Assembly (NCBI RefSeq): GCF_900475275.1
Contig: NZ_LS483364.1
Span: forward strand, 2,108,001-2,172,000
DNA from: Streptococcus sanguinis
Lineage (GTDB): Bacteria; Bacillota; Bacilli; Lactobacillales; Streptococcaceae
DNA length: 64,000 nucleotides
Direction of reading: 5' to 3'
Shown: positions 53,798 to 64,000 of the stretch, one piece after another
Numbering within the stretch: position 1 is the stretch's first letter
Layout of the letters: the number at the start of each line of letters is the position of its first letter
Notes under the pieces: generated by a model
Database searches by the model: none
Told to the model about the DNA's origin: nothing
Seen by the model: only the letters and a program-made list of their open reading frames with translations
Made by a program: the position numbers and the translations under genes

Positions 53798-54074
53798 AGT
53801 AAGCCTTATATGAATCTGCCTGCTTCTGGCTGATATTTCCTGCGCTGACTAGCTTGCTCAGGCTAGCCTTTTCATTGGTGTTCTTAAGCTCATACAGCTC
53901 CGCCTGGCTTTCTACTACCTTGACCACCGCTGCCGTTCCTGTATCTGAAACAGCATCTTTTTGCTTGGTCAGATTAGGCACAAAGAGCAGCAAGAGTACG
54001 CTGATAACCAGCAAGACAATCAGCATTTCCACAAGGGTGAATGCTTGAACTTTTAAGGTATTAAGTTTTTTCAT
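53757..54074 (-). CDS. comYC: Major competence pilin ComYC/ComGC
   Basis: A 105-residue prepilin, start ATG 54074 (RBS GGAGG), overlapping the comYB stop by one base. KVQAFTLVEMLIVLLV is the processing site and N-terminal helix; the C-terminal part is polar. Forms the transformation pilus fibre. Confidence 0.92.
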   Translation of the reverse strand: MKKLNTLKVQAFTLVEMLIVLLVISVLLLLFVPNLTKQKDAVSDTGTAAVVKVVESQAELYELKNTNEKASLSKLVSAGNISQKQADSYKAYYGKHSGETQAVAN

Positions 54075-55078
54075 TACAAATGAACCTCCATATTCTGATA
54101 AATGGGCAAGAGCATTGCCGCATAAAGTAAAACAATCACTAAGGCAACAAAAATAAATACTAGGGGCTGAATGAAATTCATGGCTCGGTTGATACGTAGG
54201 AAAAATTCCTCCCAAGTCTTTTCAGCATAGACTTCCAGCTCACTATCTAGCTTGGATTTGACCTCACCATACTCGATCATCAGGGACAATTCTTTCTTAA
54301 AGAAAGGATAGCTCGCCACCTTGTCCGCATAGCCTTGACCGCCTTGCAAAGCAGCAGCCATATCTTCTCCGATTTCCTGAAAGAGCTGGGAAGGCTGCTC
54401 CTGCATAATCGCAAAAATCTGACTCAATTCCAGGCCCTGACCAATCATATTTCCCCATTCACGAGCATAATAAGCGGTCAAGTAAGCCTGCACCAAACGC
54501 CCAATAAAAGGCAGAGCTGCTAGTTTGCTGAAAAAACGAATCTTGGATGACTTTCGATAATAAAAGAGAGCCACTGAAACCAAGGCGGCCCAAGCAAGGC
54601 TGCTCCACAAAAAAATCTGAGGCAGGTGATTAATCAGCTGAGTAGCTAGATTCTGGCTGTCTAATTGAGGCAGAAGATAGTTGCGCAATCCCAGCATGAT
54701 AAGGACCAAAAAGCCCAGCAGCATGAGAGGATAGGTTCCTACCTCTATCAATTTTTTCTTAACCTTGGACAGATTTTCCAGATAGGCCTCAATTTTGCCC
54801 AGACTAAGTGTCAGATTGCCATGCAGCTCAGATAAGGACAGCTGGGTTACAACGCTGTCGGAAAATCCCAGTCGACTGACAATCTCTGAAAAGGACTGAC
54901 CAGCTGACAAACCTGCCCGCATTTCTGCCACATAAGCCTCCTCCAGCAAGGCACTTCGCCTCAGAAAGTCTACAATCTCTGCTAAGTGAAAACCGCTGCT
55001 AAAGAGATTATGAAAGAGCTCAATAATCTTTTTCTGCTTAGGCGTAGACAATTTTTTCGGTCTGCCTTTGCTCAGCAC
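54074..55078 (-). CDS. comYB: Competence pilus platform protein ComYB/ComGB
   Basis: A GspF/PilC-like inner-membrane protein. I place the start at GTG 55078 (VLSKGRPKKLSTPKQ), seven bases after AGAAGGA and inside comYA; this gives 334 residues as usual. Two T2SSF domains with three TM segments (GTYPLMLLGFLVLIMLG and the C-terminal LVFIFVALVIVLLYA). Confidence 0.9.
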   Translation of the reverse strand: MLSKGRPKKLSTPKQKKIIELFHNLFSSGFHLAEIVDFLRRSALLEEAYVAEMRAGLSAGQSFSEIVSRLGFSDSVVTQLSLSELHGNLTLSLGKIEAYLENLSKVKKKLIEVGTYPLMLLGFLVLIMLGLRNYLLPQLDSQNLATQLINHLPQIFLWSSLAWAALVSVALFYYRKSSKIRFFSKLAALPFIGRLVQAYLTAYYAREWGNMIGQGLELSQIFAIMQEQPSQLFQEIGEDMAAALQGGQGYADKVASYPFFKKELSLMIEYGEVKSKLDSELEVYAEKTWEEFFLRINRAMNFIQPLVFIFVALVIVLLYAAMLLPIYQNMEVHL

Positions 55079-55979
55079 TGATATGTCCTTCTGCAAAAAG
55101 CTGATCAATCTGCTGATTCCAGACTGCGGCTTCGTGCTCTTGATAGTTTTGACTGACAAAATCAACGACACCTCCTCCCCCAATTAAACGCTGGTAACAA
55201 ACACCTTGAAGCACCATTCTTAGCTCATCCTCGCTAACGCCCAATTCCAAAAGTCGCTCATAGACACCGCGAACACTCTTGGCATGAATCGTTGAAAAGA
55301 CCGTAGCTCCGGTCAAACTTGCCCGAACCACTGCCCTAGCTGTCTCTCGATCACGGATTTCCCCGATAATCAAGAGATCCGGACGATGTCGCAGAGACAG
55401 CTTAATCAGACTGTCATAAGTCATGCCAATGGTTTCGTTCAGTTGCAGCTGCAGCATAGCCTCTTGCTTAATCTCAACCGGATCTTCAATCGACATAACC
55501 TGCTGATCAGAAAATTTAAGCTGAGCCAAATGGTACATCAAGGTCGTCTTGCCACTGCCGACTGGTCCTGAGAAAAGATAGAGACCGCGAGCCTGAATTT
55601 TCTTTCGCAGCTCCGGCAATTGCTCAAACCAAAAGCGCAGCTCCCTGTCTTCGTCATGAAGGAGCCGGATAACCAGACTTTCAAAACCACGGTAATCCCC
55701 AACTGACGACAGCCGAATTGAAACCTTGGCTTCCCCACAGTCATAATCGCAAGACCCCAGCTGACTGCGGCGCTTCTCTCCAACATTCATACCTGCGACA
55801 AACTTAAAGTGGCTGATAACAGCTGACAGAAGTTCAAAATCATAAGTCTTAATAAAGCGACGTTCATCACCGATTCTCATATAAAGCTCATAGCAAGTAG
55901 TCTTAGGAATGAGGTAAATATCCTGCGCCCCTTCTTGCCGAGCCTGCCTAATCATTTCTTTTGCAATTTCTTGAACCAT
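55038..55979 (-). CDS. comYA: Competence pilus assembly ATPase ComYA/ComGA
   Basis: A 313-residue GspE/PilB-type ATPase. Walker A FSGPVGSGKTTLM, Asp box IEDPVEI, Walker B LLIIGEIRDRETA, His box STIHAKS. It powers pilus extension for DNA uptake. First gene of comYA-H; overlaps comYB by 41 bases. Confidence 0.94.
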   Translation of the reverse strand: MVQEIAKEMIRQARQEGAQDIYLIPKTTCYELYMRIGDERRFIKTYDFELLSAVISHFKFVAGMNVGEKRRSQLGSCDYDCGEAKVSIRLSSVGDYRGFESLVIRLLHDEDRELRFWFEQLPELRKKIQARGLYLFSGPVGSGKTTLMYHLAQLKFSDQQVMSIEDPVEIKQEAMLQLQLNETIGMTYDSLIKLSLRHRPDLLIIGEIRDRETARAVVRASLTGATVFSTIHAKSVRGVYERLLELGVSEDELRMVLQGVCYQRLIGGGGVVDFVSQNYQEHEAAVWNQQIDQLFAEGHISAEQRQTEKIVYA

Positions 55980-55997
55980 AAATCCTCCTCACCTTAC

Positions 55998-56005
55998 TAT
56001 TCGCA
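55998..56005 (-). promoter_or_regulatory. cin box of comY operon
   Basis: Minus strand TGCGAATA, one mismatch from the SigX consensus TACGAATA, followed by GTAAGGTGAGGAGG, with T-run in front. Places comYA-H under competence sigma factor. Confidence 0.85.
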
Positions 56006-56108
56006 AAAAATCCAGAAAAAGAAAAAACAGCGGAAGAAACTTAACTTCTAACAAGTTAGGTCTCTTCTGCTGCTCTATTATCAGATTTGCAAAATATATT
56101 CTGTCGAT

Positions 56109-56489
56109 TTAAAGAGGCTTAGCGTTTTTTAGTTTGACTGAGCAAGCTCGGTGCTTTTCAAGGCCGTTCTGCTTAGTATAGCCTGGCCGGTACTTGCTCT
56201 TAGGGATCTGGCAGTCATTCTCCAGCAAAAACAGAGAGTGGTACTGCTGAACATTCTCATCGCACTCCTCGCACCAGCGCTGATCCTCCGGATCCCAAAA
56301 AATTGTCATTAAATCACTACGGCTCTTATACAAAGGTGACTGCTCTTCCATCTGCAGCCAACGGCTTTTATAATACTTAAGGGCTTCATAATAATCATCG
56401 AACTGCTTCTTTGCAACGATATCCTCTTCCCAGCCATCCAGGAACCACCACGGTTCATAGTCCCCGTACATCTCAATTACACAATACAT
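56109..56489 (-). CDS. DUF1033 family protein
   Basis: A 126-residue protein from ATG 56489 (RBS AGAGGA). Rich in Trp/Tyr/Asp (EMYGDYEPWWFLDGWEED), and with two Cys in WCEECDE. Members sit directly upstream of comGA/comYA in streptococci; function unknown. The basic C-terminal end (KHRACSVKLKNAKPL) is distinct. Confidence 0.75.
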   Translation of the reverse strand: MYCVIEMYGDYEPWWFLDGWEEDIVAKKQFDDYYEALKYYKSRWLQMEEQSPLYKSRSDLMTIFWDPEDQRWCEECDENVQQYHSLFLLENDCQIPKSKYRPGYTKQNGLEKHRACSVKLKNAKPL

Positions 56490-56555
56490 ACTCGTCCTCT
56501 CTTTGTACCGTATATTATATATGAATTCTTTGACGAACAAAACTATTTTGCTCAA

Positions 56556-56865
56556 AATCAGAAAACAAGAACTTTATTGGAACAGAGACAAGCACATCAC
56601 TCTTCATAACATGAAGATTAACATCACGGATAGTATTCTTAACCATGCGAACAAATAGTGTTGGTCCATTTACACATACGACAGGTTTCTCAACATCTAG
56701 AAACTGGATAAGTCCTGATTTAGCATAAATACAAGCTTTCTATTTTGACAATTTCTGAAATAAATCTCAATCTTTTTCTTCAAAAAAGGTGAGACAAATA
56801 TCATTTTGTCCCACCCTATTGTCTGCATGATCTTAAGCAAAATTTTCATCTTGCTTGTTTCTGCA
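56556..56865. other. Intergenic region DUF1033 / GH8
   Basis: No gene supported. Holds the hairpin GGTGAGACAAA-TATCAT-TTTGTCCCACC (56787-56816), followed by a T-run on the minus strand: the terminator of the polysaccharide operon and a short member of the GAGGTGGGAC repeat family. Confidence 0.7.
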
Positions 56866-57972
56866 TTATAAAGTTTCTAAAGCAATCATCGTTGTCACAG
56901 CTGCGTCATAGTAATTATCTGACGGCAAACCTTGCATGAAGAGATATTTATTCTGCTGCACCAATTTGCGGAATTCCATATTGTTGTTAGCCGCGTAGAA
57001 TACCGGAGCGGTAAAGCTGCCAGCCTGATTACTATTGAGAGCTTTCCCTTTCAGAGTGTAGCCCGCATAGATCTTTTCTTGACTGAGGAAGAAGTTTAAC
57101 ATCTTCTTCAGCATTTTTTGACTTTTTTCATCCTTGCTTTGAGCCAGATTGTAAGGAAGTCGGCAGGCATTATAAGAATAATAGCCATCATTTGCAGATT
57201 CAACCGTATCAGCATCAGCTGCCCAAACTTTGTCGCCTTCAACCCAGATAAAGTCTGGTATCAAACCAGTCTTATTATCAGCGCTGATTGCTTCAAGTTT
57301 GCTGAGCATGTTATCCCGAATTGTCAGCCACTGCTTATCCTTTGTCAACTCATAGAAAGCTTGGAACTGCTGCGGCAATGTATCAGAAGTCCGCATGAGA
57401 TTATAAAATTTCGATTCTGCATTTGCCCAGTTCCCAACCGTCAAAACGCCGTTACTTTCATTATAGTTATATGCCAAGACATCTTTCAGAATGGCCTGAG
57501 CCTGATCTTGGTATTCTTTAGCCTTGTCCGGCCACTGCTTAGCAGCCTGAATCAAAGCATAGGCAATGTAGAGATCGCCGTCTGTAGCATTGTTTTCGTC
57601 TTCATGATTGCTCTTTCCATCCTTAATCGTCTGTTTCCAAGACATGAGCTGGGTATCTTTCAGACGATGAGCTAGATAATATTGGTAGAGCTTCTCAAAA
57701 TCAGCAGGACTGGCATCGCCTTGCTTAGCTGCATCCACAGCAATCACCATGCCATAACCTTGTGCCTCAGACAGCACAACATCTTCAGTCTTACTGTTTG
57801 TCGTCCTGATATAAGACAATTTGTCCTTGGTTACGACATATTCTTTAGACCATTGGCTGTATATCTTCTTTTTGATATTAGGAGTACTGCCCATGCGGGT
57901 GTACAACAGGATACCAGCCAAAACAGCCAGAATTGTCACAAACCAAATAAATCTTAATCTTGTTCTTTTCAC
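56866..57972 (-). CDS. Glycoside hydrolase family 8, membrane-anchored
   Basis: A 368-residue protein with an N-terminal membrane anchor (~8-24) and a GH8 catalytic domain: acid Glu in LSEAQGYGM (residue ~69), Asp in ATDGDLYIAYAL, later NGYYSYNACRLPYNLA-like block (DGYYSYNACRLPYN). Comparable proteins (BcsZ, YdaJ, PssZ) trim the polymer made by their operon's synthase. Eight bases after the GT2 gene. Confidence 0.88.
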   Translation of the reverse strand: MKRTRLRFIWFVTILAVLAGILLYTRMGSTPNIKKKIYSQWSKEYVVTKDKLSYIRTTNSKTEDVVLSEAQGYGMVIAVDAAKQGDASPADFEKLYQYYLAHRLKDTQLMSWKQTIKDGKSNHEDENNATDGDLYIAYALIQAAKQWPDKAKEYQDQAQAILKDVLAYNYNESNGVLTVGNWANAESKFYNLMRTSDTLPQQFQAFYELTKDKQWLTIRDNMLSKLEAISADNKTGLIPDFIWVEGDKVWAADADTVESANDGYYSYNACRLPYNLAQSKDEKSQKMLKKMLNFFLSQEKIYAGYTLKGKALNSNQAGSFTAPVFYAANNNMEFRKLVQQNKYLFMQGLPSDNYYDAAVTTMIALETL

Positions 57973-57980
57973 ACTTTCTC

Positions 57981-59291
57981 CTAACCTGCAAATCGTTTTG
58001 TTTTAACCCACTTGGTTTCTTTCCTCTTCAAAATCTTGTCCAAGATAACAGATCCTACTGCATCTAAAGAAACAACGATAAAGAGCTGAGAGTAAGTCAA
58101 ATAGGACACAAGAGCCAGCCAAATCTGTTTGGTGGTCGCCTGTCCAAACTGAGAAGCCAGGGCGATATTGATCTGCAAAAGATAAAGCAAAATCATCAGA
58201 AGCCAGTTAAAGAGCATCAGCTGGACGATATAGATATTCTGAGCATCAAAAGCGAAAGGAATCCGCACATCCGGTACAAAGAGCTGGGTAATCATCGCCG
58301 CTACATTGGCAAAGAAAACCAAGTCAGATAAGACAATCGCCAAATTAAACCAGAAGAAGATACAAGAATAATTGAACACTTCCAGTTTCACGCGCCAGTT
58401 ACCGCCACTAAAAAGATGTTTGAAGTTGGCAAGAACTACCTCATAATTCCCCTTAGCCCAGCGCTTACGCTGCATGTAGTAGGACTTGAGGGTTTCTGGC
58501 TCTTGTTGGAAGGCCTCTGAGTTATAAGCCAAGGCAATCAGCTTGCCGCTCTGCATAATCTTAAAGGAAATTTCCGTGTCCTCTGTCAAGGCACCATTTT
58601 TCCAACCACCAATACTCTTAACAAACTCAGTGTTAATCAAGAAGTTCGTACCTGGAATCCGTCCAATCTTAAAGAGATGCCACATACCTACGTGGTAAAC
58701 ACGCTGAGTTACAACGATTTCTTGGTTGATACAACGTGTCAGGAAGTTCTGGTTGGCATTGCGGGTCTTGTTGCGTCCGAAAGAAGCAACGTGGCGTTCT
58801 GGATCTTCCAAAACTTTCTTGACTAGGAAGTAAAGAGCATTCTTTTCTGGCATGGCATCCGCATCATAGACACAGATATATTCACCCTTGGCCATCTTCA
58901 GGGCGTCATTCAGCACCCCTGCCTTACCTCCCGTACCAGTACGGTCTGTAATTGTAATATTGCGTCCAGCATACTCAGGCATAGCCTGTACTTTCAGCAT
59001 TTCCTGATAAGTATCATCCGAGCAGTTGTCCGCAAATAGCAGAACTTCCACTCGGTCATGAGGATAATCCAAATCCAGAATGGCCTTAGTTGTCTGAGCG
59101 ATAACCACATCTTCATTGTGGGCTGGGACAACGACTGTAACCATAGGATAATGTTCCAATGGGCTGGTATCCACGTTGAAGTCACTGCGTTTCATCCAGA
59201 AATGCACGGAAGAGCATAGAATAACCAAAGCCCAAGCCAGAGACATCCAGATGGAGAACAGAGTGACAATCATAATAAGTTGACTAATCAT
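57981..59291 (-). CDS. Processive GT2 polysaccharide synthase
   Basis: A 436-residue membrane glycosyltransferase of the BcsA/PgaC/YdaM type. Motifs: VVPAHNED, DNCSDDT, VYDADAMPE (DxD), TEDTEISFKI (TED), QRKRWAKGN (QxxRW). Two TM segments at the N-terminus and three to four after the catalytic domain. No PilZ domain. Overlaps the small upstream gene by 8 bases. Confidence 0.9.
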   Translation of the reverse strand: MISQLIMIVTLFSIWMSLAWALVILCSSVHFWMKRSDFNVDTSPLEHYPMVTVVVPAHNEDVVIAQTTKAILDLDYPHDRVEVLLFADNCSDDTYQEMLKVQAMPEYAGRNITITDRTGTGGKAGVLNDALKMAKGEYICVYDADAMPEKNALYFLVKKVLEDPERHVASFGRNKTRNANQNFLTRCINQEIVVTQRVYHVGMWHLFKIGRIPGTNFLINTEFVKSIGGWKNGALTEDTEISFKIMQSGKLIALAYNSEAFQQEPETLKSYYMQRKRWAKGNYEVVLANFKHLFSGGNWRVKLEVFNYSCIFFWFNLAIVLSDLVFFANVAAMITQLFVPDVRIPFAFDAQNIYIVQLMLFNWLLMILLYLLQINIALASQFGQATTKQIWLALVSYLTYSQLFIVVSLDAVGSVILDKILKRKETKWVKTKRFAG

Positions 59292-59427
59292 GACGAGTCA
59301 CCGCCCTAAAATTTTTATTGACCCGATTGTAAATAACCAGATAATAAATGAAGAGGACCAAAAAGCTAATAGCAAAAAAGATACTTAGCACCATAGAGAT
59401 GATAAAAAATACTTCTGTTAAAGACAT
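59284..59427 (-). CDS. 47-residue single-TM protein of EPS operon
   Basis: MSLTEVFFIISMVLSIFFAI begins a single long hydrophobic helix ending in a basic tail (NRVNKNFRAVTRHD). AGGAGG is placed nine bases before ATG 59427, and the stop overlaps the GT2 start. The position next to the synthase recalls small membrane partners such as PgaD or YdaL-like proteins; real homology is not claimed. Confidence 0.7.
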   Translation of the reverse strand: MSLTEVFFIISMVLSIFFAISFLVLFIYYLVIYNRVNKNFRAVTRHD

Positions 59428-59438
59428 GTGTTTACCTC

Positions 59439-60227
59439 CTAGTATTCTACGATAATGTCGGTTTCAAGCTGACGCTCCAGATTGCTCAAAGCGTCATCGA
59501 AATTATGGAATTTGTCAATGTTTTGAGCGTTCAATTTTAAACTGCCGGACTGAAACTGAATTTTTTGGTCAGTTTTCTTATTCTCAAAGTGCATCATCGT
59601 TAAATCGTCACGCACTTTCTCTTGGAAATATTCCTTGACTTCCTGATCCAGATCTTCTACCAGAACGAGAAAGTTACCATTGGATACATAGTAAACCGTT
59701 TCTACATTCTGGAAGTCCCAGTTAAGCAGTCGTAAAATTCTCTTGAGCATCCGCTTGTACTCCCGAGAGTGAATTTGATAAAAATGATGATTGTGTGCCC
59801 AATGGACCAGCAAAGCCTGAAAAGCTGGAGCTTGTTTCTGATTTACTTTCTGAACCATTTCTTCATAGGCCTCAGCAGCATCTTCACTGTCATCCTGCAC
59901 CAACCCCAAGCGCTGATGGAGATAGAAATTCACTCGGCTGGTCAGCCAAGCACTGACAGGGAAGACATAAAGCAAGAAGAGAACTTGATTGTCCGGTAGG
60001 TAGGTTACATCAAAGAGCAAGATCAGAGTTGCTATAACCACACCCAGAATCATTGCCCATGTCACCAAAAGATCAGATAGGACAAAGACACTAAAAATAC
60101 CTAATAAAATCAGCGCGATTCCGATATAAAATATGTTAGCTGCAAAATTCCAACTGTAGAAAAGAATTAGTCCAATTGCCAGTACAAAGACGGCTAATGA
60201 TTTTTCTAGTCCTTTTTTCCTAAACAT
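59439..60227 (-). CDS. Membrane protein with degenerate GGDEF domain
   Basis: A 262-residue protein: four TM segments in residues 10-105, then a linker and a ~150-residue domain whose strand-turn (YYVSNGNFLVLVEDLD) matches GGDEF topology with SNGNF at the signature. The RxxD inhibitory site five residues before is absent. Similar to YdaK (B. subtilis) and PssE (Listeria), which are c-di-GMP receptors for a synthase. Overlaps wecB by 8 bases. Confidence 0.6.
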   Translation of the reverse strand: MFRKKGLEKSLAVFVLAIGLILFYSWNFAANIFYIGIALILLGIFSVFVLSDLLVTWAMILGVVIATLILLFDVTYLPDNQVLFLLYVFPVSAWLTSRVNFYLHQRLGLVQDDSEDAAEAYEEMVQKVNQKQAPAFQALLVHWAHNHHFYQIHSREYKRMLKRILRLLNWDFQNVETVYYVSNGNFLVLVEDLDQEVKEYFQEKVRDDLTMMHFENKKTDQKIQFQSGSLKLNAQNIDKFHNFDDALSNLERQLETDIIVEY

Positions 60228-61377
60228 TTTTTACTCCTGTCTTAAATTCTTCCGGCCTAGCCGTCTGCTTAAAATAGTGAGCTATTGCTTGAGCAATCCG
60301 CTCAGAAGCCTTACCGTCACCATACGGATTGCTGGCTTGGGCCATTTCCTGATAGAGTGACTCATCTGTCAGCAGGGCTTCCATTGCCTCTGCTACTGCT
60401 TGAGTTTCTGTACCGACCAGCTTCAAGGTGCCGGCTTCAACTCCTTCTGGTCTCTCTGTTGTATCACGAAGTACCAGTACAGGTTTACCTAAGGAAGGTG
60501 CTTCCTCTTGTACTCCGCCTGAGTCTGACATGATAAAGTAGCTTTTAGCTGCGATATTATGGAAATCCAACACATCCAAAGGCTCAATCAGATGAATCTT
60601 TTCATTATCACTCAGAATTTCTCTGGCCGCCTCCTGAACCGCTGGGCTCAGGTGAACAGGATAGACAATTTCCACATCATCATGGGCATCTACAATCTGC
60701 CGTAGAGTTCGAAAGACCCTTCTCATCGGCTCGCCTTGATTTTCCCGGCGATGCATGGTCACCAAAATCATCTTGCGAGCTGGATCAATACGATCAAGCA
60801 CCTCATGCTGATAATCAGCCTGGACGGTCAGCTTGAGAGCGTCAATAGCTGTATTTCCTGTCACAAAAACTGTTTCTGCCGGATGGTTTTCCTTGAGCAA
60901 GTTAGCCTTACTCTGATCTGTTGGCGCAAAATACAAGTCCGTCAAAGAGTCAGTCATCTGACGATTCATCTCTTCTGGGAAAGGAGAGTATTTATTCCAA
61001 GTCCGCAAGCCAGCTTCTACGTGGCCGATACGAACTTGATTATAAAACGCTGCAAGACTAGCCGCAAAAGTCGTTGTCGTATCACCGTGCACCAGCATAA
61101 TATCTGGCTTGTTTTCCTTTAAGATATCATCCAGCTTATGCAGGATCTTGACAGTAATATCTGTCAGGGTTTGATTCTTCCCCATAATATCCAAATCATA
61201 ATCAGGCTTAATCTTAAAAGTCTCAAGTACCTGATCCAGCATCTGACGATGCTGAGCAGTCACAACTGTTGTCGTTTCAAACAAGTCTGCCTGCTTCTTC
61301 AGTTCAATAACCAGTGGAGCCATCTTAATTGCTTCTGGACGAGTTCCAAAAACAACCATTACCTTAATTTTCTTCAT
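60220..61377 (-). CDS. wecB: UDP-GlcNAc 2-epimerase
   Basis: A 385-residue non-hydrolysing epimerase interconverting UDP-GlcNAc and UDP-ManNAc. FGTRPEAIKMAPLV, HVEAGLRT, TMHRRENQGEPMR, and SDSGGVQEEAPSLGKP are all conserved. First gene of the polysaccharide operon, which suggests the polymer contains ManNAc. Confidence 0.93.
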   Translation of the reverse strand: MKKIKVMVVFGTRPEAIKMAPLVIELKKQADLFETTTVVTAQHRQMLDQVLETFKIKPDYDLDIMGKNQTLTDITVKILHKLDDILKENKPDIMLVHGDTTTTFAASLAAFYNQVRIGHVEAGLRTWNKYSPFPEEMNRQMTDSLTDLYFAPTDQSKANLLKENHPAETVFVTGNTAIDALKLTVQADYQHEVLDRIDPARKMILVTMHRRENQGEPMRRVFRTLRQIVDAHDDVEIVYPVHLSPAVQEAAREILSDNEKIHLIEPLDVLDFHNIAAKSYFIMSDSGGVQEEAPSLGKPVLVLRDTTERPEGVEAGTLKLVGTETQAVAEAMEALLTDESLYQEMAQASNPYGDGKASERIAQAIAHYFKQTARPEEFKTGVKNV

Positions 61378-61450
61378 TTTTCCTCACCAAAAATCAACAT
61401 TCTTATATTAACTTTTTACTAAAAAATGTTTGTTTTAAGTAACCTTAGTT

Positions 61451-61479
61451 ATTTTACCATCAAGCGTTTCAATAATCAA
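61451..61479 (-). promoter_or_regulatory. Promoter of polysaccharide operon
   Basis: Minus strand TTGATT (61474-61479), 17 bases, TAAAAT (61451-61456); about 67 bases of leader to wecB. Confidence 0.65.
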
Positions 61480-62100
61480 AGCATGAACTATTATTTTATA
61501 CTTTCTTAATAGTAATTTACATGTTGGTAACTTATTTAAGATTATTTTAATTTTCTTAACTTAACTGTAACTTAAAATTACTGAAATTTTTTGGTTTTCT
61601 CAAAAAAATAAATAAAAAGGAAAGAACTTATAGGCTTAAAGCCCTGATTTATGCAGAATTTTGTGTTTTTTACCTATATTTTTTAATCTTTATTCATTGT
61701 AATAAAATATTATTCTATTTGTAATCTAATTGTTTTCTACTCTTTATATTTCAAAATCCTCCCTTCATGAATGAGCTAGCTAGATAAACGCCAGCTACTG
61801 TTCTCCACAATCTTCGACTACTACCATTAAAACCAACCTCCTCTTTTTTAAAATTTCAAACCTGCCCCTCCTACTATTTTAGGATTTTTAAAATAGTATA
61901 ACCTAGCGCTATCATACTACAAAAACCAGCTACCTCCCTGATTAAAAATAAATATGGCATCTCGCATCATAGAAAAACTGAAACAGGAAATCTTGAATAT
62001 TTCTTCTATAGTCGTTGATCCATAAAGGAGAACTTAAAAACAACTTTCTAAGTATATTATGGGATAATATTTAGTGGCGGGCAAGAAATTATCGGCTGCA
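61480..62100. other. Non-coding gap between rpoC and wecB
   Basis: About 620 bases without a gene I can support. A second possible minus-strand promoter is TTGCCC-17-CATAAT (62056-62084). Downstream three Shine-Dalgarno-like purine runs occur (GGGAGG, AGGAGGGG, GAGGAGG), the last placed nine bases before an ATG at 61827 that opens only ten codons. Confidence 0.45.
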
Positions 62101-62108
62101 AGAAAAAA

Positions 62109-62131
62109 TCCCTCCCGATTTTCGGGAGGGA
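62109..62131 (-). terminator. rpoC terminator
   Basis: TCCCTCCCGA-TTT-TCGGGAGGGA with a minus-strand T-run. Confidence 0.9.
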
Positions 62132-62138
62132 AAGTTCT

Positions 62139-64000
62139 TTATTTAAGAACAATATTTTCTTCAGTTTCAAATCCATCTGGCAGTTCTGTCACTTCGTTGA
62201 TAATTTCAACTTCATTGACAGCCTGAGGTTCCAGATTGCGGTAGCGGGCCATACCAGTACCAGCTGGGATAATCTTACCGATGATAACATTTTCCTTGAG
62301 TCCGAGCAGATGGTCTTTCTTACCACGGATAGCAGCATCTGTCAGGACACGAGTTGTTTCCTGGAAGGAAGCTGCAGACAGGAAGCTATTTGTCTCAAGG
62401 GAAGCTTTGGTGATTCCCATGAGGACTGGACGAGCTGTCGCAGGCACACCGCCAGAGATAACCACATCACGGTTAGCATCTGTAAAGTCAGTGATATCCA
62501 TAAGAGTTCCCATGAGAAGATCTGTATCTCCTGGATCCATAACGCGCACCTTGCGAATCATTTGACGAACCATTACTTCGATGTGCTTGTCACCGATTTC
62601 TACCCCTTGGCTGCGGTAAACTTTTTGTACTTCAGCAAGCAGGTAAGTTTCAACAGACAAGACATCGCGGACAGCCAGCAAGTGCTTCGGCTGGATAGAA
62701 CCTTCGGTCAAGGCAGCACCGCGAGAAACTTGGTCGCCAACTTCTACCTTCATGCGGGCTGTAAATGGTACCACATATTCACCTTCGCCAGTTTGGCCTT
62801 TAACAAAGACTTTCTTGGTACGAGTAGATGCATCTTCTTCGATAGCAGTAACTTCACCCTTGACTTCAGTGATGACCGCTTCCCCTTTCGGATTGCGGGC
62901 TTCAAAGATTTCTTGGACACGAGGGAGACCTTGCGTGATATCGGTATTAGAGGCAACACCACCCGTATGGAAGGTACGCATGGTCAGCTGTGTACCAGGC
63001 TCCCCGATAGATTGAGCAGCGATGGTTCCGACTGCTTCACCGACTTCAACCGCATCACCCGTTGCCAAGTTGATACCGTAACAGTGACGACAGACACCGT
63101 GGCGGGTGTTACATGTAAAGACGGAGCGGATTGTCACTTCTTCAACACCAGCATTAACGATTTCACGTGCCTTGTCTTCGGTGATCAATTCATTTGGACC
63201 AATAATGACAGCACCAGTTTCTGGATGTTTAACTGTTTTCTTAGTGTAACGACCATTTAGGCGCTCTTCCAGAGACTCGATCATTTCCTTGCCTTCTGTG
63301 ATAGAAGTGATGAGCAAGCCACGATCTGTACCACAGTCATCTTCACGGATAATCACATCTTGGGCAACGTCAACTAGACGACGAGTCAGGTAACCTGAGT
63401 CGGCAGTCTTAAGGGCCGTATCTGTCATACCCTTACGAGCACCGTGGGTAGAGAAGAACATTTCCAGAACGGACAGCCCTTCGCGGAAGTTAGACAAGAT
63501 TGGCAATTCCATGATACGTCCATTTGGCGCAGCCATCAGACCACGCATACCGGCCAACTGGGAGAAGTTAGAGATGTTACCCCGAGCTCCAGAATCCATC
63601 ATCATAACGATAGGGTTCTTCGGATCTTGGTTGGCAACCAAACGTTTTTCCAATTTCTCACGAGCTGCCCGCCACTCAGCAGTCACTGCATTGTAGCGTT
63701 CGTCATCAGTAATCATACCGCGACGGAATTGTTTAGTGATTTGTTCTACACGTTTGTGTGATTCTTCAATAATCTCAGCCTTGTCTTCAACAACTGGAAT
63801 ATCAGCGATACCCACTGTCAGACCAGCCAAGGTAGAATGGTGATACCCCAGATTCTTCAAGCGGTCAAGAAGAGCAGATGTTTCTGTCGTACGGAATCGT
63901 TTGAAGATTTCTGCGATGATATTCCCCAGATTTTTCTTCTTAAACGGAACATTGATCTCAAGCTGTTCAATGACTTCCTTGATGTCTTGTCCTGACTCCA
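62139..64000 (-). CDS. rpoC: RNA polymerase beta' subunit, C-terminal part
   Basis: About 620 C-terminal residues; the frame is open to the window edge, so the true start is outside (a TTG at 63860 is internal). Recognisable are [20 protein letters not shown], the trigger-loop region, [12 protein letters not shown] (zinc-binding Cys), [18 protein letters not shown] and [20 protein letters not shown]. Universal core subunit. Confidence 0.97.

What the first reader, a model, noticed from the sequence alone, without database searches (positions are those of the whole stretch)
56866..61377. Exopolysaccharide operon with degenerate GGDEF protein and a 47-residue membrane peptide
Five linked genes: UDP-GlcNAc 2-epimerase, 4-TM degenerate GGDEF protein, 47-aa single-TM protein, GT2 synthase, GH8 hydrolase. 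The set parallels B. subtilis ydaJKLMN and Listeria pss (poly-ManNAc) systems, where the GGDEF-like protein binds c-di-GMP. Here the I-site RxxD is missing and streptococci are not known to make c-di-GMP, so the switch must use another signal or be constitutive. The epimerase suggests a ManNAc polymer. Chemistry and control are inference.
Basis: partly seen in the sequence, partly recalled or inferred. Interest (0 to 1): 0.8.

Follow-up and report, generated by a model that had tools for sequence, protein, structure and literature searches.

The report
Polysaccharide operon with repurposed GGDEF switch
This oral streptococcus carries a five-gene machine that probably makes and trims a surface sugar polymer, and its switch protein appears to descend from receptors for the messenger c-di-GMP but has lost their known binding site, so the polymer is probably controlled in some other way.

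Summary
DEG is a GGDEF relative only through intermediates (profile chain 99.8, 99.4, 96.9 per cent); the direct comparison fails (0.8) and both AlphaFold models were useless. The system is a sister of yda/pss, not a member: no DUF2334 or BcsB gene in the operon, a separate GT2 clade, a 44-56-aa single-pass protein in 25 of 25 DEG-GT2 gaps examined outside streptococci, and a DEG tail R..E.[DH]...EY in 34 of 34 rows against 0 of 8 yda/pss-type rows. Members in large Bacilli genomes keep the c-di-GMP I-site RxxD (16 of 16 sequences); none of 47 distinct sequences from the streptococcal order has it, best read as one loss. DEG stays under purifying selection (dN/dS 0.07-0.17), so it works without that site. 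'Streptococci make no c-di-GMP' is too broad: 7 of 147 genomes have GGDEF domains (a published module), but none was found in this genome. Most likely DEG is an obligatory, c-di-GMP-independent activator subunit. A ManNAc polymer is plausible, unproven.

The parts
60220..61377 (-). EPI: UDP-GlcNAc 2-epimerase (non-hydrolysing, WecB/MnaA type), first gene
   Evidence: TIGR00236 525 bits over cut-off 210; only PF02350 match in the genome
59439..60227 (-). DEG: 262-aa membrane protein with degenerate GGDEF-derived cytoplasmic domain
   Evidence: profile chain to GGDEF, direct comparison negative; alignments
59793..59801 (-). DEG W143-x-H145 motif, in the loop where GGDEF enzymes have DxD
   Evidence: H in 18 of 18 and W in 17 of 18 rows of streptococci plus Lactobacillaceae-like rows, neither in the other 16 system rows; the H column is also H in 3 of 6 true GGDEF rows and 1 of 8 yda/pss-type rows
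59700..59711 (-). DEG residues 173-176 (QNVE), register of the lost I-site RxxD
59670..59684 (-). DEG residues 182-186 (SNGNF), register of GGDEF
59442..59474 (-). DEG C-terminal tail RQLETDIIVEY (R252-Y262), mark of this system
   Evidence: 34 of 34 system rows, 0 of 8 yda/pss-type rows; 67 of 69 readings, both misses one truncated gene
59284..59427 (-). S47: 47-aa single-pass membrane protein, positive C-terminus
   Evidence: aligned in 35 rows; dN/dS 0.04-0.22
57981..59291 (-). GT2: processive-type family 2 glycosyltransferase, four hydrophobic segments
   Evidence: tree
56866..57972 (-). GH8: family 8 glycoside hydrolase with N-terminal hydrophobic segment
   Evidence: PF01270 108 bits; PDB relatives: glucanase 5xd0, chitosanase 1v5c
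61451..61479 (-). candidate operon promoter (TTGATT-17-TAAAAT with TG)
   Evidence: consensus match only; 28 promoter-like sites found against 13.9 expected in 55900-62200
62109..62131 (-). intrinsic terminator after rpoC (gene name recalled), upstream of the operon
   Evidence: 10-bp stem plus T-run
56786..56817 (-). hairpin followed by T-run after GH8, probable operon terminator
   Evidence: 13-bp stem, -18.4 kcal/mol, z -5.07; not found by the consensus scan

Best explanation
A synthase-dependent exopolysaccharide machine. EPI makes UDP-ManNAc (enzyme family shown; use inferred). GT2 polymerises and extrudes it (family shown; sugar inferred). GH8 trims or releases the chain outside (family shown; role inferred). 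DEG and S47 are obligatory membrane subunits of the synthase (inferred from conservation). DEG descends from an I-site c-di-GMP receptor of the YdaK/PssE type. On the branch leading to the streptococcal order it lost the RxxD site and became a c-di-GMP-independent activator that holds GT2 in a working state through its conserved C-terminal tail and S47 (contacts inferred). Control would then sit at transcription, at precursor supply, or at a still unknown input to DEG.
For: Operon conserved in 24 of 24 streptococcal loci read, 22 distinct. DEG and GT2 travel together: all 25 of 147 genomes with a GT2 relative of 57% identity or more have DEG; the one DEG carrier of that set without such a GT2, G102, has only DEG and GT2 fragments. 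Profile chain: streptococcal to Lactobacillaceae-like 99.8, to a mixed set of ten further rows of the order 99.4, that set to true GGDEF 96.9; streptococcal to Paenibacillus-like 96.6; Paenibacillus-like to yda/pss-type 96.0; yda/pss-type to GGDEF 98.8 per cent; unrelated controls at most 1.3. R and D of the I-site: 16 of 16 Paenibacillus-like sequences and 8 of 8 yda/pss-type rows, but 0 of 28 aligned rows of the order and 0 of 53 readings, 39 distinct, (47 distinct over both sets). GT2 tree: system clade 100/100, order clade 100/100. DEG dN/dS 0.07-0.17. YdaK R202A and D205A abolish polymer (PMC5422440 passages), so the lost residues are the essential ones there; L184's RETD starts at residue 202.
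Against: Streptococcal DEG compared directly with true GGDEF domains gives no signal (0.8 per cent); other weak links are streptococcal to yda/pss-type 18.5 (86.3 in the reverse run), Lactobacillaceae-like to GGDEF 63.3 and to yda/pss-type 2.1. Both structure models failed. No binding, polymer or interaction data exist. DEG has a higher dN than EPI and GT2 in every pair, which also fits changing ligand selection. The order lacks the I-site even where GGDEF enzymes are present (5 of 5 such genomes with an aligned intact row: G421, G459, G248, G143, G449), so 'no messenger, no site' is not the whole story. The PssE/YdaK analogy would predict a ligand. The RxxD-bearing group is itself weakly supported as one clade (87/61).
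Confidence: 0.55

Rival explanations
1. DEG is still a receptor but for another ligand, such as c-di-AMP or a nucleotide, using a new pocket (for example near the conserved W-x-H) in place of the lost I-site.
For: W-x-H fixed in streptococci and a sister clade: H 18 of 18, W 17 of 18, neither in the other 16 system rows. DEG under purifying selection but fast. Domain ancestry is nucleotide binding.
Against: No known ligand motif; W-x-H may be structural, and the H column is also H in 3 of 6 true GGDEF rows and 1 of 8 yda/pss-type rows; registration in this loop is uncertain by a residue; alignment of streptococcal rows to true GGDEF is indirect.
Confidence: 0.25
2. The switch still answers to c-di-GMP through residues other than the I-site, with messenger supplied by the PAS-GGDEF module or from neighbours.
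For: 7 of 147 streptococcal genomes have GGDEF domains over cut-off, one with an internal stop; one of 32 streptococcal DEG carriers searched, G449, has one.
Against: 31 of 32 streptococcal DEG carriers searched have no GGDEF match, this genome among them; the I-site residues proved essential in YdaK are absent in all rows of the order examined.
Confidence: 0.07
3. The polymer is not ManNAc-based: GT2 uses UDP-GlcNAc or UDP-Glc, and the epimerase serves another glycan.
For: GT2's best NCBIfam model is PgaC/IcaA (138 bits, well under its cut-off 422); nearest PDB chains are cellulose synthases; GH8 relatives are named glucanase, cellulase and chitosanase; outside streptococci only L059 and L103 of the loci read have the epimerase beside DEG or GH8.
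Against: EPI leads the operon in 24 of 24 streptococcal loci, 22 distinct, is the only one found in the genome, and the two families tested as other UDP-ManNAc users gave nothing over cut-off.
Confidence: 0.3
4. DEG is a decaying relic on its way out.
For: Fast divergence: 28-53 per cent identity between the window and other streptococcal species against 79-88 per cent for GT2.
Against: Uninterrupted in every streptococcal locus read and dN/dS 0.07-0.17; conserved tail.
Confidence: 0.02

Closest known systems
Bacillus subtilis ydaJKLMN / Listeria pssA-E exopolysaccharide systems
   Same: Membrane-anchored degenerate GGDEF protein and GT2 synthase in one operon; the GGDEF protein is required for polymer in both (PMC4125290 and PMC5422440 passages). 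YdaJ is called a putative glycosyl hydrolase (PMC13274460 passages); here L183's copy scores GH8 under cut-off and L181's not at all
   Different: No DUF2334 or BcsB gene in the operon; separate GT2 clade (31-38 per cent identity; tree); adds S47 and, in streptococci, the epimerase; DEG has its own tail and, in the streptococcal order, no I-site
   Same: Same clade of GT2 (48-52 per cent), same small protein, same DEG tail; a GH8 gene just before DEG in L177, the only one tested (24.8 bits, cut-off 24)
   Different: Keeps RxxD (16 of 16); DEG of L180, the only one tested, is over the Pfam GGDEF cut-off; genomes with 12-21 GGDEF matches each, 16 of 16; no epimerase match in the loci read
PgaC-PgaD / IcaA-IcaD PNAG synthases
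   Same: GT2 plus a small membrane partner protein (PgaD read in PMC8461298 passages; IcaD recalled)
   Different: GT2 far under the PgaC/IcaA cut-off; S47 is 47 aa with one membrane span and matched no PgaD model
Streptococcal Pel operons
   Same: Polysaccharide operon whose regulator was built on a degenerate GGDEF domain
   Different: Streptococcal PelD has lost the GGDEF domain (PMC7112168 passages), whereas DEG keeps a diverged one
Lactobacillus acidophilus gts operon
   Same: GT2 with a membrane partner protein in a lactic acid bacterium (PMC6123363 passages)
   Different: Receptor there is a degenerate EAL protein that binds c-di-GMP
E. coli BcsE-BcsF (BcsE read in PMC8461298 passages; BcsF's size recalled)
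   Same: Degenerate GGDEF protein paired with a small membrane protein in a synthase complex
   Different: No sequence relation tested; BcsE is soluble and keeps an I-site

Membership tests
GGDEF superfamily (DEG) | Pfam PF00990 match over cut-off | tested here: not met
   window DEG: no match; relatives L180, L181 and L183 are over cut-off, as are DEGs of G421, G459 and G346
GGDEF superfamily (DEG) | profile relation to GGDEF domains | tested here: inconclusive
   direct 0.8 per cent; through intermediates 99.8, 99.4, 96.9 per cent
GGDEF superfamily (DEG) | GGDEF fold | tested here: inconclusive
   models at pLDDT 45 and 38, not searched further
c-di-GMP I-site receptor (YdaK/PssE type) | RxxD upstream of the degenerate motif | tested here: not met
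   Q173/E176; 0 of 28 rows and 0 of 53 readings of the order
c-di-GMP I-site receptor (YdaK/PssE type) | c-di-GMP binding | not testable with these tools
   needs a binding assay
yda/pss operon | DUF2334 and BcsB genes in the operon | tested here: not met
   present in L181 and L183, the two tested, absent from the window operon; rest of the genome not searched for them
yda/pss operon | GT2 of the YdaM/PssC clade | tested here: not met
   8 yda/pss-type rows 100/100 on one side, 30 system rows 100/100 on the other
PNAG synthase (PgaC/IcaA) | NCBIfam TIGR03937 over cut-off | tested here: not met
   138 of 422 bits
GH8 hydrolase | PF01270 over cut-off with catalytic motifs | tested here: met
   108 bits, cut-off 24; SEAQGYGM, DGD (motif roles recalled)
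Non-hydrolysing UDP-GlcNAc 2-epimerase | TIGR00236 over cut-off | tested here: met
   525 bits, cut-off 210
ManNAc polymer system | ManNAc in the product | not testable with these tools
   needs sugar analysis

The most novel reading that the evidence does not exclude
A GGDEF-derived receptor that lost c-di-GMP recognition once, at the base of a bacterial order, and was retooled to read a different intracellular signal (possibly at the W-x-H site), switching a ManNAc-polymer synthase through a conserved tail and a 47-residue membrane subunit that no family model searched here covers.
Probability: 0.22. Interest if true: 0.82.

Novelty: new variant of a known kind. Interest (0 to 1): 0.6.

Why it matters
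It outlines a widespread Bacilli exopolysaccharide system distinct from yda/pss, with a tiny subunit that matched no Pfam or NCBIfam model over cut-off, and offers a natural experiment: the same synthase with and without the c-di-GMP site. It makes directly testable how a degenerate GGDEF protein activates a synthase, and whether it can do so with no messenger. S. sanguinis is a common dental-plaque species (recalled); the searches made here listed no paper whose title names such an operon in it.

Tried and rejected
Structure: single-sequence AlphaFold of DEG (pLDDT 45) and a six-row S. sanguinis alignment of its cytoplasmic half (pLDDT 38) were too poor, so no fold search was run. PDB sequence search with DEG gave three matches at E 0.77-1.3, taken as chance. 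No Rfam family in 55500-62500 at gathering threshold. DUF948 and DUF4399 hints for S47 and DEG are under cut-off.

Rejected: plain yda/pss membership; decay; I-site loss simply following loss of GGDEF enzymes (the order lacks the site even in 5 of 5 genomes that have such enzymes and an aligned intact row). The module of GGDEF plus PilZ synthase in other streptococci looked new until a passage in PMC10333796 showed it to be published.

Literature: ten searches of open-access PMC. No title listed names this S. sanguinis operon; the only paper holding GGDEF, Streptococcus sanguinis, exopolysaccharide and glycosyltransferase together (PMC4082707, passages) is about S. mutans transposons. Every paper cited was seen as passages only. 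Most subscription papers were not searchable.

Limits: genomes with G numbers are unnamed; the group names used (Lactobacillaceae-, Paenibacillus-like; Bacillus and Listeria for L181-L184) are inferred from rank labels, genome size and operon content, and the 'mixed set of ten' (labelled entC there) holds rows of families f3, f4, f8 and f9. The names rpoC, comGA and comGB are recalled from the sequences. Rows for motif counts were found with DEG profiles and the sets overlap, so they are not independent samples. DUF2334 and BcsB were tested in two of the eight yda/pss-type loci. L187 and L190, fetched with them, were not used as yda/pss-type DEG rows. G125 and G250, weak partial matches, were left out of the genomes searched. 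In the first script for small ORFs the longest ORF was in the wrong frame in 6 of 25 gaps; these were corrected from the printed frames. In L178 the longest reading is 60 aa, and it was left out of the small-protein alignment. L190 and L192 were dropped from the second tree as very long branches. One of nine pairs gave no dN/dS for EPI, DEG, GT2 and GH8 (saturated) and another none for S47. The six true GGDEF rows aligned do not have R and D in the I-site columns; that loop is gapped there and active enzymes need no I-site (recalled).
Full report
What is there. The window lies in a 2.33-Mb genome, and its DEG is 95-100 per cent identical to that of seven named Streptococcus sanguinis records, from which the species is inferred. 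On the minus strand run EPI, DEG, S47, GT2 and GH8, overlapping or spaced by at most 11 bp. The operon is set off from rpoC (name recalled) by a terminator at 62109-62131 and followed by a 13-bp hairpin with a T-run at 56786-56817. A promoter-like site lies at 61451-61479, but such sites are over-represented in this stretch (28 against 13.9 expected). Downstream are a DUF1033 gene and a gene recalled as comGA.

The genes. EPI is a non-hydrolysing UDP-GlcNAc 2-epimerase (525 bits, cut-off 210) and the only PF02350 gene found in the genome. No WecG/TagA match and no UDP-sugar dehydrogenase over cut-off (two under it) were found; these two families were the only other UDP-ManNAc users tested. GT2 carries DxD, TED and QxxRW motifs (their role in processive synthases is recalled) but is far under the PgaC/IcaA cut-off. 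GH8 is over the Pfam cut-off and is closest among solved structures to a glucanase and chitosanases. DEG has no family match over cut-off.

Is DEG a GGDEF protein? Compared directly with 16 GGDEF domains, the streptococcal profile gives no signal (0.8 per cent). Through intermediates the chain is strong and collinear: streptococcal to Lactobacillaceae-like 99.8, to a mixed set of ten further rows of the order 99.4, that set to true GGDEF 96.9 per cent; streptococcal to Paenibacillus-like 96.6; Paenibacillus-like to yda/pss-type 96.0; yda/pss-type to GGDEF 98.8. Weaker links: streptococcal to yda/pss-type 18.5 (86.3 in reverse), Lactobacillaceae-like to GGDEF 63.3 and to yda/pss-type 2.1, Paenibacillus-like to GGDEF 82.9. 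Unrelated controls reached at most 1.3 (alignments). Less diverged members pass the Pfam cut-off on their own. The GGDEF register reads SNGNF in the window. Structure prediction failed twice, so the fold is not shown.

A system of its own. In 24 of 24 streptococcal loci, 22 distinct, the five genes are together. In the wider order the core DEG - small protein - GT2 - GH8 recurs, with the epimerase beside it only in L059 and L103 of the loci read. Six loci from Bacilli genomes of 5.4-7.6 Mb have DEG, the small protein and a GT2 at 48-52 per cent identity. A gene just over the GH8 cut-off precedes DEG in L177, the only one of these tested. The DEG-GT2 gap holds a single-pass protein in 25 of 25 non-streptococcal gaps examined. 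An alignment of 35 rows (44-56 aa) shows a shared shape: short N-terminus, one hydrophobic segment, C-terminus with basic residues. The tail R..E.[DH]...EY is present in 34 of 34 DEG rows and 67 of 69 readings, the two misses being one truncated gene of G102; none of 8 yda/pss-type proteins has it. The two yda/pss-type operons tested carry DUF2334 and BcsB genes, absent here. A maximum-likelihood tree of 38 GT2 proteins separates the 30 system rows from the 8 yda/pss-type rows at 100/100 and unites the 24 rows of the streptococcal order at 100/100; the six RxxD-bearing rows form one group at 87/61 only.

The lost site. YdaK and PssE act through RxxD; in YdaK either substitution abolishes polymer (PMC5422440, passages), and PssE binds c-di-GMP at 0.79 uM (PMC4125290, passages). 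Both residues are present in 8 of 8 yda/pss-type rows and 16 of 16 Paenibacillus-like sequences, whose genomes hold 12-21 GGDEF matches each (16 of 16). Not one of 28 aligned rows of the order, nor of 53 readings there, has both; 47 distinct sequences in all. On the tree this is best read as one loss. The loss is not just a result of lacking c-di-GMP: six of the 55 DEG-carrying genomes searched have strong GGDEF matches other than DEG (over 100 bits), and in the five of them with an aligned intact row the site is gone too (in the sixth, G285, DEG is split). Among streptococcal carriers searched, 31 of 32 have no GGDEF match.

DEG is not decaying. Pairwise dN/dS is 0.07-0.17, against 0.01-0.04 for GT2 (8 of 9 pairs). 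Its identity between the window and other streptococcal species is 28-53 per cent where GT2 keeps 79-88 per cent. What stays fixed is the tail and a few core positions. A W-x-H motif is fixed in the streptococci and one sister clade (H 18 of 18, W 17 of 18) and absent from the other 16 system rows; the H alone also occurs in 3 of 6 true GGDEF rows and 1 of 8 yda/pss-type rows, so only the pair is distinctive.

Mechanism. Shown: gene content, co-occurrence, homology chain, absence of the I-site, selection. Inferred: DEG and S47 form a complex with GT2; the tail is the output contact; the active state no longer needs c-di-GMP; the polymer contains ManNAc. Listeria Pss is a ManNAc polymer with galactose branches (PMC10620520, passage). 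The yda-dependent polymer was reported to bind a lectin for alpha-Gal/GalNAc (PMC13274460, passages), so chemistry may vary within the wider family and cannot be read from the genes.

Seven of 147 streptococcal genomes have GGDEF domains over cut-off, one with an internal stop. In G449 a PAS-GGDEF protein, a GT2-GtrA protein, a PilZ-bearing synthase-like protein and a fourth protein without a Pfam match stand together. Such a module is published (passage in PMC10333796, citing Liu 2020, which is not held). Contrast: streptococcal PelD lost its GGDEF domain altogether (PMC7112168, passages).

Noticed in passing
L061-L067 and L192: 7 of 147 streptococcal genomes, and G449, have GGDEF domains over cut-off. 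G449 has a PAS-GGDEF, GT2-GtrA, PilZ-synthase and fourth protein in a row; L061's synthase also has PilZ. Such a module is published (PMC10333796 passage).
   Followed up: partly
window 54074-62139 and L026-L032, L043, L044, L046, L047, L050, L053, L055, L116: The operon sits between rpoC and DUF1033 (with comGA in all of these but L055; names recalled) in S. sanguinis and some other streptococci, but these neighbours were not found in L041, L042, L045, L048, L049, L051, L052, L054 and L056, so it has moved or been gained separately.
   Followed up: partly
L026, L031, L032, L050, L053 against L027-L030: The spacing between GH8 and DUF1033 differs by about 1 kb between these loci.
   Followed up: no
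L058 (G102), L097, L106, L107: Broken copies: DEG and GT2 fragments in G102, short GT2 in L097, split GH8 in L106, split DEG in L107.
   Followed up: no
L192 751-912: A fragment like the start of the operon's epimerase lies directly before the GGDEF module in G449 (65 per cent over 37 aa).
   Followed up: no
G592 and G661: GT2 relatives in open frames of 1117 and 1102 aa, suggesting fused synthase proteins.
   Followed up: no
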